NCBI GenBank assembly: GCA_010365215.1
Contig: JAAFGT010000017.1
Span: 53,700-95,837 of the forward strand
Source of the DNA: Acidipila sp.
Lineage (GTDB): Bacteria > Acidobacteriota > Terriglobia > Acidiferrales > UBA7541
Length of the DNA stretch: 42,138 nt
Direction of reading: 5' to 3'
Shown here piece by piece: positions 31,523 through 36,898 of this stretch (positions within the stretch are counted from its first letter, which is position 1; every line of letters begins with the position of its first letter). Both the position numbers and the translations under genes were made by a program. Below the pieces are notes generated by a model. It was not told the origin of the DNA. It worked only from the letters and a program-made list of their open reading frames with translations, and searched no databases.

Positions 31523-31551
31523 TTGCAATCGCCAGTTGGTTCTGCTATAAG
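31523..31551 (+). promoter_or_regulatory. Extended -10 promoter of the lasso peptide operon
   Basis: TTGCAA (31523-31528), 17-base spacer ending TGC, TATAAG (31546-31551): an extended -10 (TGnTATAA) with a fair -35 and ideal spacing. The transcript should start near 31558. It lies in the 155-base spacer shared with the minus-strand lipoprotein. Confidence 0.6.
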
Positions 31552-31578
31552 CGCAGGAGTGGTTTTTTCGCTCCGCAG

Positions 31579-32928
31579 TTGGCGGCGATTCTCGTGGACA
31601 CGAGTTTGATTCCGGACACGCTCCATTCTTCCGCCGCTACTTATTCACACAACAGCCTCGGTGTGCAGCCCCGCGCCGCCGCAGATCAACTTAAAATTTT
31701 ACTGAGCCCGGAAGAAGATCTCCTCGTTTCAATGGTTACCGGGCGCTATGATCCCGCTGTGTTTCGTAAAGCCGACTGGCCTGCGCTCACCGTTGCGGCA
31801 GCGCGCCTGGGAATGTTGGGCCACCTGGCAAGGCGGGCGGAAGAGTTTAGCCTTGCAGGCGTGCCGGGCAGCAGCCTCGCGGCCTGCGTGGAAGCGTGGC
31901 GCGGTCAGACTGCATTTAATTTGCTGTTGGCGCACACCGAGAAAGACTGGCTTGGAGTTCTGGCCGCGCGCGGCATTACTGCAATTCCACTGAAAGGCGT
32001 GTCGCTCTCGCGAATTCTATATCGGAGCCCGGCCGTCCGCTCCACCACCGACGTCGATCTGCTCGTACCCGCGGCGCAAATGAGCACGGCAGCGGAGATT
32101 TTCGAAGAGCGCGGGTACAGGTCGGCGCTGCCGCGCGCTTTACTGTCACGCCGAGCATTCCTCTCTCACACGGACGAGCACACTGCTGAAACCGTATACG
32201 TTGCCGAGCGGGGTGGAATTCCCGTGCAGGTCGAGTTGCACTGGAAAATTCTGCCGCTGCAGGAAAAGACCATCTGGAATTCGCTTGTTGAATACGACGC
32301 GGAGGGCGGTGCGGTCCGTGGGCTTTCCCAGGCGCCCTACTTGCTCTATCTGTGCGCACACCTGGCTGGACACGGCTGGCGCTCGCTGCACTGGCTGGCA
32401 GACATTGCTGCCTTTCTGGAAAAGTTCTCGGGCCGCATGGACGCCGCGGAATTTCTGGGCCATTGCGATCGTGCGAGGTTTCGCCATCGCGTGGGAGTTA
32501 CATTTGCTCTGCTCGAAGCATACTTTGGAATGCAGTGGCAACCCGCCAAGTCACTCGTTACCGTTCGCGCCCGCCGCGCAGCGGAGGGTTTCTTACGCCG
32601 GCCTCTCGAACCCGCCAGCACGCCCGGCGTCCTGGAAGTCCACCGCGAGCGTCTGCGCCAATTGGACGGCGGAAAAGACCGATTGCGTTATCTGTCGCGG
32701 CTCGCACGGCCCACTCGCGAAGAGTGGGCGCGGGAAGATGGCTCGTTGCGAACAACCGCCGCAGCGTGGGCGATACGCGCGCGACGCCTTTTGAATCTGG
32801 CCAACGGCGAGAACAAGCCAGAGAAAATTGTGGAATCAGATTTCAGTTCTTCTGCGAACCGGCACCCACAGGATCCCGCGGAGCGCCAAGCGCAGCGGCC
32901 GCTGGAACGTCCGCGAGGGACAATCTAG
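31579..32928 (+). CDS. Nucleotidyltransferase-family protein of the lasso cluster (NTP_transf_5 type)
   Basis: 449 residues. Residues about 130-190 hold the family core: ARGITAIPLKGVSLSRILY, then RSTTDVDLLVPAAQM with the paired acidic metal-binding residues of nucleotidyltransferases (DVD). A helical C-terminal half follows, with LLYLCAHLAGHGWRSLHWLADI. Homologues recur in lasso peptide clusters that also have an HPr-like kinase; in pseudomycoidin the equivalent protein was linked to sugar addition on the phosphorylated peptide. Here a tailoring role is inferred. TTG at 31579 is the first start after the promoter, with no well-spaced ribosome site, so the true N-terminus may be somewhat further in. 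Its TAG overlaps the next GTG. Confidence 0.8.
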   Translation: MAAILVDTSLIPDTLHSSAATYSHNSLGVQPRAAADQLKILLSPEEDLLVSMVTGRYDPAVFRKADWPALTVAAARLGMLGHLARRAEEFSLAGVPGSSLAACVEAWRGQTAFNLLLAHTEKDWLGVLAARGITAIPLKGVSLSRILYRSPAVRSTTDVDLLVPAAQMSTAAEIFEERGYRSALPRALLSRRAFLSHTDEHTAETVYVAERGGIPVQVELHWKILPLQEKTIWNSLVEYDAEGGAVRGLSQAPYLLYLCAHLAGHGWRSLHWLADIAAFLEKFSGRMDAAEFLGHCDRARFRHRVGVTFALLEAYFGMQWQPAKSLVTVRARRAAEGFLRRPLEPASTPGVLEVHRERLRQLDGGKDRLRYLSRLARPTREEWAREDGSLRTTAAAWAIRARRLLNLANGENKPEKIVESDFSSSANRHPQDPAERQAQRPLERPRGTI

Positions 32929-33248
32929 TGCCCGGTGAAACAGCGCTGCGCGTGAGTCCCGATGTGGTGGCGCAGGATTTGGGCGATGGCCTGGTGCTTT
33001 TGAATTTGCGCACCGGCATCTACTGGGGCCTCAACAGCACCGGTGCGGCCATCTGGCGGGGCATCGAAAATCAGGATGGAGTCGAAAAAATCTGCCGGCA
33101 GCTCCGTGCTGAATTCGACGGTTCCGAAGAAGAATTTGCCTCTGCCGTCCACGCACTGCTTTCCGAACTGGCCGCACATGAACTTATCGTAGAGAAAGCT
33201 GCGTCCGCTGCGAAAATCACCGGCAAAAAGACCCGAAAGGCGAAATGA
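32928..33248 (+). CDS. PqqD-like RiPP recognition element (lasso B1 protein)
   Basis: 106 residues from GTG at 32928. PqqD family: LRVSPDVVAQDLGDGLVLLNLRTGIYWGLNSTGAAIW is the winged-helix core that binds the leader peptide and presents the precursor to the peptidase. Helices follow at about 55-85 (EKICRQLRAEFDGSEEEFASAVHALLSELAAHELI), then a Lys-rich tail. The reading frame is open far upstream, but that part is antiphase to the nucleotidyltransferase gene; the GTG sharing one base with its TAG, with GAGGGA 7 bases before, is the likely start. Its TGA overlaps the B2 ATG (ATGA). Position and size fit a discrete, unfused B1. Confidence 0.9.
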   Translation: MPGETALRVSPDVVAQDLGDGLVLLNLRTGIYWGLNSTGAAIWRGIENQDGVEKICRQLRAEFDGSEEEFASAVHALLSELAAHELIVEKAASAAKITGKKTRKAK

Positions 33249-33658
33249 CCCGCGTTCTTGAGCACGCGCGCAAGTTAACTTGGCGCGAGTTCACAGGCAT
33301 CAGCGAAGCCGCCATGGTTCTGTGCCGCGTTGCATTCGGGCTGCGCCAAAGTAATTTTGCGGAACTTGTGAGGCGGCTGCATCTGGATGAAAAAATGCCG
33401 GCCGCGGGGGCGGAGCTTGTGGAGCAAGAAGCGCGCCGCGTGCGCCGGGCCCACCGACTGGTGCCGTTGGAGACAAACTGCCTGCTGGATTCGGTCGCCA
33501 CTGCCGTCTTGGTTCACCGCCGTGGGTACTCGATAGCTCTAGTAATTGGCGTGCAAAGGGATGGCGCTTCGCTGCACGCGCACGCCTGGCTTGGAGAACC
33601 TTCTCCTCAAGATGCCAGGAATTTTCGGCCCCTTCTTCGTGTCCCCAGCGAAGAATAG
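33245..33658 (+). CDS. Lasso peptide leader peptidase (B2, transglutaminase-like)
   Basis: 137 residues. Stand-alone cysteine peptidase domain of the lasso B2 family (C-terminal half of McjB). The catalytic Cys79 is in LVPLETNCLLDSVATAVLVHRRGY, His113 in LHAHAWLGEP, and Asp123 nearby is the probable third residue; spacing resembles the McjB triad (34 and 10 residues here). It should cut the precursor after the -1 residue, exposing Gly1. It overlaps B1 by four bases and is followed 83 bases later by the cyclase. No RRE is fused, consistent with the separate B1. Confidence 0.9.
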   Translation: MTRVLEHARKLTWREFTGISEAAMVLCRVAFGLRQSNFAELVRRLHLDEKMPAAGAELVEQEARRVRRAHRLVPLETNCLLDSVATAVLVHRRGYSIALVIGVQRDGASLHAHAWLGEPSPQDARNFRPLLRVPSEE

Positions 33659-33741
33659 GTTCACAGCCGTAAGTTTTTTGCGAGCTTCGCCAGTGGTTTC
33701 ATGGGCATTGTTTGGCGCGTCTCCCGGAGGAAACCCGGTAC

Positions 33742-35655
33742 ATGGGCGGTCTAGCGGGCATTGTTGTGAGCGGCGGCGAGTTCGCGCCACCGATGAATCT
33801 TCTGCCGCAGTTCGAGCAAATGATGGCCTCGCTCGCCCACCGCGGCGGCACCGACCCGGACGCCACGTGGCACGGCCCCGGTGGTTTGCTTGGCGCGCTC
33901 ACCCTTTCTCGCGCAACCCCCGAACGCCCGCTCCTGGAAGATCCTGAGAGCGGACTCATCCTCGCCTGGCACGGTCGCCTTGATAATCGCCTAGAACTGC
34001 TCACCGAGCTCGTTGAACCCGGCGAGCAGCCGGGCGATGCTGCTATTGTCCTCCGCGCCTTCAAACGATGGAACGAAAACTGCGTTTCAAAACTGATTGG
34101 CGATTTCGCATTTGCCCTCTGGGACCCGCGCACCCGCGCACTATTCGCCGCGCGTGATGCGCTGGGGTTGAAACCTTTCTTCTACAGCAGCGGGCCCGGC
34201 AGTTTTTATTTTTTCAGCGAAGTGCAGGCGCTGGCTCGGCTCCCGGGCGTCTCGGCCGAAGTGAATGACGAAACGGTCGGCGAATTCCTCCTTGGCTGGA
34301 CAGACTTTCCGCGCATTGAGCGCACGTTCTACCGACAGATCGAGCGTCTTCCACCGGCCCACTGGCTGCGCTGGAGCGCCGGGCGGCTTGAAATCGAGCG
34401 CTACTGGCGTGTCGACCCGGCGCGCCGCCTGCGCTTTCCGCGTCGCGAGGATTACGTCCAGGAATTTGGACGACTGTTCACTCAAGCGGTGGCTTGCCGC
34501 CTACCCTCCACAATGAAAGTTGGAGTTTTTCTCAGCGCGGGGCTTGATTCTGGAGCCGTTTGTTCCATCGCAGCCAAGGTGCGACCTGGCGGCGCGGGGC
34601 TGCGCGCGTATTCAATTTCATTGGAAGGCACGGCGGCGCTAACGAAGGCAACCGGGGACGAGAGCGTGTACGCTGCGCGCGTGGCGCAGGAGCTGGGCAT
34701 CGCCTGCGACCGTGTGCCGCTTTCGCGCTCGGCGGATCTGGGCGAACTTTCTTCGCGGCTTTCGCGACACGCTTCACCGTTTTTCGAGGAAGGCTGGGCG
34801 CACGAAGAAAATCTTCTGCGTCGCGTAGCGAAAGATGGCCTCGAGGTAGTGCTCACCGGTGACGGCGGCGACGAATTATTTAACGACCCTGGCGCTTACG
34901 TAGCCGACCTGGTGCGCAGCCTGCGATGGGCGAAGCTTGCCGTCGAGATCGGCGCGCGCGCGCGTTATTATCAGCGCACGCCGCTTGATGCGCTGCGCAG
35001 GGCGCTGCCCGGCGTGGTTCCCACCTGGGGGATCCGCGCATGGCGATCGTGGAAGCCACGCGCACTGCCATCGTGGATTGACCCGTGCTTTGCGGACCGC
35101 ATCGGCCTCAGCGAGCAGCTCCGCGAGGTGCGGTCGAAACTTCCTTTCAGTTCTCTCAGCGCCGACGCCGACCACCACGCCCTCACCCGCGGCCGCATGA
35201 CCCTGATGCACGAACAAAGAGAATGGGCAGCGGCGCAGCACGGCATTGAGTACCGTTTTCCTTTCTATGACCGGCGCCTGATCGAATTTCTTCTGGCCAT
35301 CCCGTACGAGTTGAAATCCGAAGGCGGACAGCCCAAAAGCCTGCTGCGAAAACTCCCGGGAATTTCGCCATTGGTCTTGGCGGCAAACCGCGAAAAGGTG
35401 GATTACGGAGGCCGGGCGGAAAGTATTCTTCGAGAACAGCTCGGCGAGGCGCTCGGCCATCTGTTCCAAAATCCCCCACCGGCCGCCCAAATGTACGTCC
35501 GGACGGCTCAGGCGCAAACCCTTTGCCAAGAGTTCCTTGCGGGCGCCGATAATCAGGAAAAGCCGGTTTGGATACTCGCCTGTTTTTTTCTCTGGATTCA
35601 ACACGCCGTATTGGGTATAAATAAAGATGGTCAAGGGGAAGGAGTAACGCGTTGA
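33742..35655 (+). CDS. Lasso cyclase, asparagine synthetase-like (C protein)
   Basis: 637 residues. The ATP-pyrophosphatase domain should adenylate the ring carboxylate and close the macrolactam. Its PP-loop SAGLDSG is at residues 265-271, and VLTGDGGDELF follows near 370. The N-terminal Ntn glutaminase-like domain starts MGGLAGIV, where glutamine-dependent AsnB has MCGI; the nucleophile Cys is replaced by Gly, consistent with an amine donor that is the peptide itself. ATG 33742 is chosen for this N-terminus and for GGAGGA at 33726-33731; an in-frame TTG at 33712 is rejected. At its 3' end AAGGAG at 35639-35644 serves the precursor, whose TTG overlaps the TGA by two bases. Confidence 0.92.
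   Translation: MGGLAGIVVSGGEFAPPMNLLPQFEQMMASLAHRGGTDPDATWHGPGGLLGALTLSRATPERPLLEDPESGLILAWHGRLDNRLELLTELVEPGEQPGDAAIVLRAFKRWNENCVSKLIGDFAFALWDPRTRALFAARDALGLKPFFYSSGPGSFYFFSEVQALARLPGVSAEVNDETVGEFLLGWTDFPRIERTFYRQIERLPPAHWLRWSAGRLEIERYWRVDPARRLRFPRREDYVQEFGRLFTQAVACRLPSTMKVGVFLSAGLDSGAVCSIAAKVRPGGAGLRAYSISLEGTAALTKATGDESVYAARVAQELGIACDRVPLSRSADLGELSSRLSRHASPFFEEGWAHEENLLRRVAKDGLEVVLTGDGGDELFNDPGAYVADLVRSLRWAKLAVEIGARARYYQRTPLDALRRALPGVVPTWGIRAWRSWKPRALPSWIDPCFADRIGLSEQLREVRSKLPFSSLSADADHHALTRGRMTLMHEQREWAAAQHGIEYRFPFYDRRLIEFLLAIPYELKSEGGQPKSLLRKLPGISPLVLAANREKVDYGGRAESILREQLGEALGHLFQNPPPAAQMYVRTAQAQTLCQEFLAGADNQEKPVWILACFFLWIQHAVLGINKDGQGEGVTR
35639..35644 (+). promoter_or_regulatory. Ribosome binding site of the lasso precursor
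   Basis: AAGGAG with a 7-base spacer (TAACGCG) to TTG at 35652. It lies inside the last codons of the cyclase and decides the precursor start, since no ATG is present in frame. Confidence 0.8.
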
Positions 35656-35804
35656 AAAAAGGATCCATTAATCAGACTCCGGAAGAGAAGAGGAAGCCCG
35701 CCTTCTTGCCTCCCCGCCTCGAGCGCTTTGGAACGCTTCGCGAACTAACGCGCGGCAGCGTAGGCTTCAGGCACGACTCCGCGTTTCGCCGCTCTAAGCC
35801 ATAA
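35652..35804 (+). CDS. Lasso peptide precursor (A protein)
   Basis: 50 residues, TTG start overlapping the cyclase TGA. Leader of 34 residues: F18-L-P-P21-R-L23-E-R-F-G27 fits the lasso leader motif Y-x-x-P-x-L-x-x-x-G, with Phe in the Tyr position. Thr33 stands at -2 to the predicted cut, as required by B2 enzymes. The predicted core is GSVGFRHDSAFRRSKP: Gly1 supplies the amine and Asp8, its only acidic residue, the carboxylate, giving an 8-residue ring. The tail SAFRRSKP contains Phe11, Arg12 and Arg13 as possible plugs. The gene lies directly after B1, B2 and C and before a kinase. The cut after Arg34 and the ring are predictions; the fit to all four rules makes the assignment strong. Confidence 0.9.
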   Translation: MKKGSINQTPEEKRKPAFLPPRLERFGTLRELTRGSVGFRHDSAFRRSKP

Positions 35805-35923
35805 GCTTCTATCGCGCCTGGCACGTAGATCCCGGGTCGTTAATATCTTCGAATCCGCCGCCCCGAGCGGTTCCATTTTTTGCAACTGGATTCCTGAGAC
35901 TCGGTCCGGTATAACAGCGGCGT

Positions 35924-36898
35924 GTGAAGAAAAACAAGCCCAGAAATATCCTGCTTCCCACCGTCCTGCGCCTCGCTGGCGAACGCCTTCACATTCGGTA
36001 TTCCCGCGTCGCGCCTCCCGCTCTACCCAAGCGCGCTACCCTGCTGCGGCGCACGAATGATCGCGCCGGACGGCTCGCATCGCGCTACTGGCAGACCTCA
36101 AGCAAAGGACAATATCGGCTCGATTGGCTCGACGCCGGAGTTTTCGATCTGGATGCCAAACGCGGGAAGGTGACTTGCGTTCTTTACCCCGATATCTCGC
36201 CAGGTGCCGTTGAAGAAGTTCTGCGCGGGCCGGTCTGCGCCTTTTTTCTACTGGAGCGCGGCTTCGAGCCGCTCCACGCGAGCGCGGTGGCGCTTGACGG
36301 ACGCTGTCTTGCTTTCGCGGGTGCTCCCGGCGCGGGAAAATCTTCACTCGTGGCCTGGTTGTCGCGCAATGGCGCGCAATTCCTGTGCGATGACATTCTC
36401 CCATTGCGCCAGAAAGGTGGAATGGTGTGGGGACATCCCGGGCTGCCGCAACTGCGTTTGGAGCCCCCTGCAGCGCAAAAACTCGGGTGGCGAGGACACC
36501 AGGAAGCGCGAAGTCCCTCTTCGCAGCTCAGGGAAAAATCGACGTTTCCAGTAACTCCGCCCCGCGAACCGAACCGCGTGGCACGCATCTATCTGTTGGA
36601 GAGAATTCCTCCGCAGAAGGGACGCCAACGAAGCAAAAAATCAGCAAGCGGTAATGCCCAAGCTCATCGTGTCCAAGCTCATCGTGTCCAAATTCAGCGT
36701 GTGAGACCGCGTCAGGCTTTTCGTGCGCTGCTCAAATCCACGCGCAACGATTCGCTCGATACGCCCGCGCGCTTGCGCCGGCAAATGAGCCTCTTCGCGC
36801 ACATTGCCCGGACCGTGCCGGTGTGCCGGCTGCGATATCCCCGCGACTACGGCGCGCTTCCGGCAGTCTTGGCGCAGATTCAGCAGGATCTGAAATAA
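35924..36898 (+). CDS. HPr kinase-like protein of the lasso cluster (putative lasso peptide kinase)
   Basis: 324 residues. Similar to the C-terminal half of HPr kinase: HASAVALDGRCLAFAG then Walker A GAPGAGKSS at 133-141, followed by FLCDDILPL and HPGLPQLRL. Homologues in lasso clusters (ThcoK, PadeK) phosphorylate a serine of the precursor, in paeninodin the C-terminal Ser. Here the substrate would be this precursor, but the core ends RRSKP, so Ser14 (or Ser2/Ser9) must be considered. Residues 246-260 are an in-frame tandem repeat (QAHRV-QAHRV-QIQRV). GTG at 35924 has no ribosome site; TATAAC at 35910-35915 lies just before it. It is 119 bases after the precursor. Confidence 0.82.
   Translation: MKKNKPRNILLPTVLRLAGERLHIRYSRVAPPALPKRATLLRRTNDRAGRLASRYWQTSSKGQYRLDWLDAGVFDLDAKRGKVTCVLYPDISPGAVEEVLRGPVCAFFLLERGFEPLHASAVALDGRCLAFAGAPGAGKSSLVAWLSRNGAQFLCDDILPLRQKGGMVWGHPGLPQLRLEPPAAQKLGWRGHQEARSPSSQLREKSTFPVTPPREPNRVARIYLLERIPPQKGRQRSKKSASGNAQAHRVQAHRVQIQRVRPRQAFRALLKSTRNDSLDTPARLRRQMSLFAHIARTVPVCRLRYPRDYGALPAVLAQIQQDLK
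36659..36703 (+). repeat. Tandem 15-base repeat in the lasso kinase gene
   Basis: Two exact copies of CAAGCTCATCGTGTC followed by a diverged third (CAAATTCAGCGTGTG). In frame, they encode QAHRV, QAHRV, QIQRV at residues 246-260. Confidence 0.9.

What the first reader, a model, noticed from the sequence alone, without database searches (positions are those of the whole stretch)
31523..36898. Complete-looking lasso peptide biosynthetic cluster in a probable acidobacterium
Six adjacent plus-strand genes match the lasso RiPP pathway: nucleotidyltransferase, B1 (PqqD/RRE), B2 (Cys79/His113 peptidase), C (ATP-dependent cyclase), A (precursor) and an HPr-like kinase. Four of the genes are joined by stop-start overlaps and a plausible promoter leads the row. 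The order NT-B1-B2-C-A-K is different from the A-first order of many known clusters, with the precursor gene near the 3' end. The product would be new.
Basis: partly seen in the sequence, partly recalled or inferred. Interest (0 to 1): 0.92.

Follow-up and report, generated by a model that had tools for sequence, protein, structure and literature searches.

The report
Divergent lasso peptide gene cluster, acidobacterium
This is a real gene cluster for making a small knotted (lasso) peptide, probably phosphorylated near its tail end, in an acidobacterium; such clusters are common in its relatives, but this one is an isolated, divergent version with an oddly shortened leader-cutting enzyme.

Summary
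The finding holds. Window 31579-36898 (+) encodes NT, B1, B2, C, A and K of a lasso peptide pathway. B2 and A pass lasso-specific NCBIfam cut-offs; B1, C and NT pass Pfam cut-offs; K has the exact motif of lasso precursor kinases. The precursor reads FxxPxL(-17..-12), T(-2), core GSVGFRHDSAFRRSKP: a G1-D8 ring with an 8-residue tail. That motif occurs once in the window against 0.05 expected. Lasso B2 genes are common here (66 of 89 family genomes) and A after C is the family norm; only NT-first is unusual for the family, though it occurs elsewhere. So this is a new member of a known kind. Three additions. (1) The cluster is deeply divergent (cyclase at most 33% identical to any found) and sits away from the family's usual lasso locus. 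(2) Its B2 lacks about 8 residues just after the catalytic His, present in every other B2 compared, so peptidase competence is uncertain. (3) 29 of 41 kinase-associated precursors in the family end in a basic-Thr/Ser motif (about 8 by chance); the window's R13-S14 fits, predicting Ser14 as phosphosite. No chemistry is shown.

The parts
31579..32928 (+). NT: NTP_transf_5 nucleotidyltransferase with KG-x13-R-x3-D-x-D motif; start codon not settled
   Evidence: PF14907 143.8 bits; alignment with NTs of acidobacterial lasso clusters, K139 G140 R154 D158 D160 invariant; motif
32928..33248 (+). B1: PqqD-like RiPP recognition element (RRE)
   Evidence: PF05402 62.5 bits; best NCBIfam matches are the lasso PqqD models, below their cut-offs
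33245..33658 (+). B2: leader peptidase, Cys79/His113; about 8 aa shorter than all homologues just after HAW
   Evidence: NF033537 60.1 bits, cut-off 33; alignments; tails of all B2s; AlphaFold2 model pLDDT 89.5
33742..35655 (+). C: asparagine-synthetase-like lasso cyclase, 637 aa; no N-terminal Cys (MGGLAG); SAGLDS and GDGGDE motifs
   Evidence: PF00733 155 bits; NF033535 343 bits; motifs; tree; ATG start with Shine-Dalgarno
35652..35804 (+). A: precursor, leader LKKGSINQTPEEKRKPAFLPPRLERFGTLRELTR, predicted core GSVGFRHDSAFRRSKP
   Evidence: NF033521 22 bits, cut-off 19; motif positions -17/-14/-12/-2/+1/+8 and chance estimate; Shine-Dalgarno AAGGAG before TTG
35924..36898 (+). K: HprK-like precursor kinase, H118, G133/G136/G138, K139 S140, D156 D157
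   Evidence: TIGR04352 E 2e-7 (below cut-off); profile match to HPr kinase structures; exact motif spacing of BsfK (PMC10368454)

Best explanation
A lasso peptide biosynthetic cluster of the kinase-plus-nucleotidyltransferase type (like bsf of Bradymonas and psm of Bacillus pseudomycoides). B1 binds the leader at FxxPxL (-17 to -12). K, probably aided by B1, phosphorylates the linear precursor, most likely at Ser14 of the core (RRSKP). B2 cuts after R(-1), two residues after the scissile-site Thr(-2) begins. C activates Asp8 with ATP and closes the Gly1-Asp8 isopeptide ring around the tail, giving a 16-residue lasso peptide. NT would then modify the phosphoserine (a hexose was seen with PsmN). 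Shown here: gene identity, catalytic motifs, precursor anatomy. Inferred: every reaction, the phosphosite, the NT reaction, export and biological role.
For: Family matches. Precursor motif in exact canonical register, 0.05 expected by chance. Catalytic residues in B2, C, K and NT. The same gene families co-occur in about 15 same-family clusters and in Rubrobacter, Chloroflexota and cyanobacteria. C-terminal [RKH][ST] motif in 29 of 41 kinase-associated precursors of the family against 7.9 (sd 2.5) shuffled, and present in the window as R13-S14. Literature for K and N: PMC10368454, PMC9266682.
Against: B2 lacks about 8 residues (the strand after HAW) present in every other B2 compared. The second look at PDB matches lists classical transglutaminases for an ordinary B2 model but not for this one. 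C has SAGLDS instead of SGGLDS. No exporter or isopeptidase gene was found beside the row. BsfK acts on Ser3, not near the C-terminal end (PMC10368454), so the phosphosite could be Ser2 or Ser9. Soil-metagenome and Bradymonas clusters failed to give product in heterologous hosts. No close relative was found to test purifying selection.
Confidence: 0.85

Rival explanations
1. A decaying lasso cluster: the row once made a lasso peptide, but the in-frame loss of about 8 codons in B2 has disabled the leader peptidase, so no mature product is made.
For: The segment is present in all other B2s compared. Orphan B1-B2 pairs without a cyclase are frequent in genus g6 of the family (e.g. L050, L052), so decay probably happens in this group. 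The AlphaFold2 model has a rearranged third strand.
Against: Every other gene is open over its whole length, GC by codon position is coding-like, coupling overlaps and Shine-Dalgarno sites are kept, the precursor is canonical, the deletion is in frame and the model is confident (pLDDT 89.5).
Confidence: 0.2
2. A PqqD/HprK-related peptide-modification system that is not lasso-forming (like the HPr-rel-A or SynChlorMet cassettes), with C acting as another amidotransferase.
For: B1 and K also match HPr-rel-A and SynChlorMet models weakly. Related loci with B1-B2-K-NT and no C exist in the family (L098-L101).
Against: B2 and A pass lasso-specific cut-offs, the lasso cyclase model is the best NCBIfam match for C, and the precursor has the full lasso signature including Gly1 and Asp8.
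Confidence: 0.05
3. A lasso cluster as in the best explanation, but the kinase acts on Ser2 or Ser9, or on nothing, rather than on Ser14, and NT is not part of peptide tailoring.
For: BsfK is specific for core residue 3 (PMC10368454). NT is placed first here, unlike in the same-family clusters that hold both genes.
Against: The C-terminal basic-Thr/Ser motif is strongly enriched in kinase-bearing clusters of the family. Paeninodin-type kinases act on the C-terminal Ser (PMC9266682).
Confidence: 0.4

Closest known systems
bsf cluster of Bradymonas sediminis FA350 (BsfA/B1/B2/C/D/K/N; PMC10368454)
   Same: Split B1/B2, C, HprK-like kinase and nucleotidyltransferase; leader motif spanning -17 to -12; Gly1-Asp8 ring
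   Different: bsf has an ABC transporter (D) and Ile(-2), and its kinase acts on Ser3; the window has T(-2), no transporter beside it and a likely C-terminal phosphosite
Pseudomycoidin (psm) and paeninodin (pade) clusters (reviewed in PMC9266682)
   Same: K phosphorylates the precursor at the C-terminal end; psm also has an NT that leads to hexose on the phosphate
   Different: There the acceptor is the C-terminal Ser itself; here the candidate Ser is third from the end; other phylum
Acidobacterial soil-metagenome lasso cluster BGC 44.1 (PMC9064862)
   Same: Acidobacterial best matches; listed gene order B1-B2-C-A with the precursor after C
   Different: BGC 44.1 has D1/D2 transporters, and no K or N is listed among its genes
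Same-family clusters B1-B2-C-A-K-NT (e.g. L107, L116, L121)
   Same: All six gene families; A between C and K; many with a basic-Thr/Ser tail end
   Different: NT last instead of first, located on the other side of surE-merR-der where this could be seen, C only about 26-32% identical, core position 1 not Gly
NT-B1-B2-C-A-K clusters of another family of the class (L234, L237)
   Same: Exact gene order
   Different: Unrelated cores (..SDGFTFNGVPISG) and a distant cyclase

Membership tests
Lasso peptide biosynthetic cluster | B1 RRE (PqqD-like) protein | tested here: met
   PF05402 62.5 bits, cut-off 23.4
Lasso peptide biosynthetic cluster | B2 transglutaminase-like leader peptidase with Cys and His | tested here: met
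   NF033537 60.1 bits, cut-off 33; C79 and H113 invariant
Lasso peptide biosynthetic cluster | B2 complete through the strand that follows the catalytic His (third catalytic residue, Asp in McjB) | tested here: inconclusive
   About 8 residues missing relative to all other B2s compared; which residue serves as the acid could not be placed
Lasso peptide biosynthetic cluster | C cyclase of the asparagine synthetase type | tested here: met
   PF00733 155 bits; NF033535 best match, though 343 bits is under its 525 cut-off; placed among lasso C proteins on a long branch
Lasso peptide biosynthetic cluster | Precursor with YxxPxL-type motif, T(-2), Gly1 and Asp/Glu at 7-9 | tested here: met
   FLPPRL at -17..-12, T-2, G1, D8; NF033521 22 bits, cut-off 19
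Lasso peptide biosynthetic cluster | Threaded isopeptide product | not testable with these tools
   Needs expression or reconstitution with MS/NMR
Kinase-tailored lasso clusters (paeninodin/pseudomycoidin/bsf type) | HprK-like kinase with H-GxxGxGKS-DD motif beside A | tested here: met
   H118-G133-G136-G138-K139-S140-D156-D157, same spacing as BsfK (PMC10368454)
Kinase-tailored lasso clusters (paeninodin/pseudomycoidin subtype) | C-terminal Ser as phosphoacceptor (paeninodin rule; not shared by bsf) | tested here: not met
   The core ends SKP; the last residue is Pro and Ser is third from the end
Kinase-tailored lasso clusters with N gene (psm/bsf type) | Nucleotidyltransferase gene | tested here: met
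   PF14907 143.8 bits

The most novel reading that the evidence does not exclude
The cluster stands for a separate lasso lineage whose B2 works with a trimmed catalytic domain (a minimal leader peptidase that lacks the strand after the catalytic His) and whose kinase marks a Ser three residues from the tail end, so that a charged or sugar-capped phosphoserine sits behind the ring as a plug.
Probability: 0.2. Interest if true: 0.5.

Novelty: new member of a known kind. Interest (0 to 1): 0.33.

Why it matters
It adds a predicted 16-residue lasso peptide, and a deeply divergent set of maturation enzymes, from Acidobacteriota; in the papers read, acidobacteria-like soil lasso clusters were cloned but gave no detected product. 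The comparison gives a testable phosphosite rule (basic residue plus Thr/Ser near the tail end) for a large group of uncharacterised kinase-bearing clusters, and points to a B2 that tests which parts of the leader peptidase are needed.

Tried and rejected
Frameshift as cause of the short B2: the other two frames after HAW give no homologous continuation. PDB sequence search with the B2 profile: nothing; Foldseek: no match under E 0.001; VIA-align second look: best Z 4.4, rmsd 2.7, 81 aligned, to a Streptococcus transglutaminase-like protein, too weak to build on. Relatives of the precursor in 399 genomes of the class: best E 9e-4 with a stop inside, taken as noise. First genome-contig scan with C alone found nothing; the alignment scan gave 80 loci. 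Plasmid search with C gave only distant asparagine-synthetase relatives. Promoter scan: nothing above chance. A 240-aa 'C-like' gene upstream of family clusters proved to be QueC in the case tested. The pseudomycoidin and paeninodin papers themselves are not held, so those facts rest on a review.

Full report
What is there. Pfam and NCBIfam identify NT (PF14907), B1 (PqqD), B2 (lasso_biosyn_B2, above its cut-off), C (Asn_synthase; lasso cyclase as best NCBIfam model, under its strict cut-off), A (lasso leader L3, above its cut-off) and a weakly matched HprK-like K. C starts at ATG 33742, not at the upstream TTG: the alignment begins there and a GGAGG site precedes it. A starts at TTG 35652 behind AAGGAG and overlaps the C stop by four bases. 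NT/B1 overlap by one base and B1/B2 by four; B2-C and A-K are separated by 83 and 119 nt. No promoter above chance was found at the head of the row.

Precursor. The leader carries F-17 xx P-14 x L-12 and T-2; the core begins G1 and has D8, so the canonical reading is an eight-residue ring with an eight-residue tail, GSVGFRHD-SAFRRSKP. The complete motif with a stop soon after occurs once in the six-frame translation of the window, against a mean of 0.05 in random windows of the same dinucleotide make-up. No convincing relative of this precursor was found in 399 genomes of the class.

Enzymes. B2 has the invariant Cys79 and His113-Ala-Trp. C lacks an N-terminal nucleophile Cys (MGGLAG) and has SAGLDS and GDGGDE. 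K has H118, G133, G136, G138, K139, S140, D156 and D157, the same residues at the same spacing as BsfK (PMC10368454), and its family profile matches HPr kinase structures. NT has the KG..R..DxD motif shared by its relatives.

The B2 anomaly. In nearly every other B2 from the loci collected here the His-Ala-Trp (GHCW in L098-L101) is followed by a segment of the type xExxGxxV(L/I)xG or xExxGxxLND, or a same-length variant of it. In the window, HAWL is followed directly by GEPSPQDARNFRPLLRV, which aligns with the part after that segment (compare L242: HAWVELDERVVLGGSDSARNFQPL). About eight residues are missing, in frame; other frames give no continuation. AlphaFold2 still gives a confident model (pLDDT 89.5, pTM 0.82) with a strand at 127-133, whereas a full-length B2 from Rubrobacter taiwanensis has the usual hairpin strand at 128-131. 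In the weak structural second look, the full-length B2 lists many transglutaminases and the window's B2 does not. The segment lies where the third member of the Cys-His-Asp triad of McjB-like enzymes (PMC11420955, PMC7533575) would be expected, but that residue varies among the B2s here, so loss of function is possible and not shown.

Relatives. 66 of 89 genomes of the same family have a lasso B2 match, 41 of 50 among the better assemblies. In the family the usual kinase-bearing order is B1-B2-C-A-K(-NT): the precursor after C and before K is the rule, and only the NT-first position of the window is unusual. NT-B1-B2-C-A-K occurs in two genomes of another family of the class (L234, L237) and NT-first rows occur in Rubrobacter (L158), Dehalococcoidia (L201) and a cyanobacterium (L191). 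The cyclase tree puts the window on a long branch (1.58) with at most 33% identity to any other row and outside the main family clade; its exact place is unresolved. surE-merR-der is conserved in the family; where a family lasso cluster lies nearby it is beyond der, on the 5' side of surE, whereas the window's cluster is on the 3' side, and the nearest relative read (L252) has other genes there. Together this suggests an independent origin of the window's copy rather than simple descent of the family locus; that is an inference.

Organism. G036 contig 105 and G015 contig 29 (same family) agree in length and gene positions with JAKASX010000008.1 (Acidobacteria bacterium) and JAIQEW010000022.1 (Terriglobia bacterium), and G105 contig 239 with JASHRM010000101.1 (Candidatus Acidiferrales bacterium). 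So the window is acidobacterial.

Phosphosite. Of 41 predicted kinase-associated precursors from the family, 29 have [RKH][ST] within the last five residues, against 7.9 (sd 2.5, maximum 17 in 2000 shuffles) when tail residues are shuffled. The sequences are related, so the shuffle overstates independence, and two of the 41 (an extra hit each in L112 and L124) look spurious. The window's tail ...FRRSKP contains R13-S14 at the same place. Paeninodin-type kinases act on the C-terminal Ser and PsmN leads to hexosylation of phosphoserine (review PMC9266682), whereas BsfK acts on Ser3 (PMC10368454). Ser14 is therefore the best prediction, not a result.

Verdict. A genuine, divergent, probably phosphorylated lasso peptide cluster: a new member of a well-known kind. 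Its distinguishing features are the isolated enzymes and the trimmed B2, and the product, if made, is new.

Noticed in passing
L047-L131 precursors (e.g. L103:5912-6061, L064:10806-11045, L129:5763-5927): In the same-family clusters the leader ends with T at -2 in the canonical register, yet core position 1 is Thr, Ser, Ala, Lys, Gln, Asn, Arg, Val or Leu and not Gly in the real precursors, usually with Gly at position 3 and Asp at 8-10. Either these lasso peptides close through unusual first residues or B2 cuts about two residues further on (Gly1-Asp7).
   Followed up: partly
L098-L101 (e.g. L098:7345-10730): Rows of B1-B2-K-NT without any cyclase; B2 has GHCW instead of HAW. They may be a non-lasso peptide system related to HPr-rel-A.
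   Followed up: partly
L049, L050, L052, L068, L069, L072, L074, L080, L086, L087: Orphan B1-B2 pairs without C, A or K in genus g6; in L050 queC lies just upstream, and similar PP-loop hits lie upstream of several complete clusters of the family. They may be remnants of decayed lasso clusters.
   Followed up: partly
L051, L053, L058, L078, L079, L081, L083: Clusters with two full-length cyclase-like C genes in tandem after one B2, no K beside them, and B2 ending in a conserved C-terminal Cys (..VLDRC).
   Followed up: no
L065:11435-12108, L076:5699-6130, L096:5832-6098: Clusters without K whose small ORFs (MxYxKPEIAVLGDAxxxIxG...ELDD/E) look like a different precursor family with acidic C-termini; the three in L065 are tandem.
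   Followed up: no
L162 (Methanobacteriaceae UBA587), L173 (Halosimplex salinum): Lasso-type B1, B2 and C genes with K nearby in archaeal contigs.
   Followed up: no
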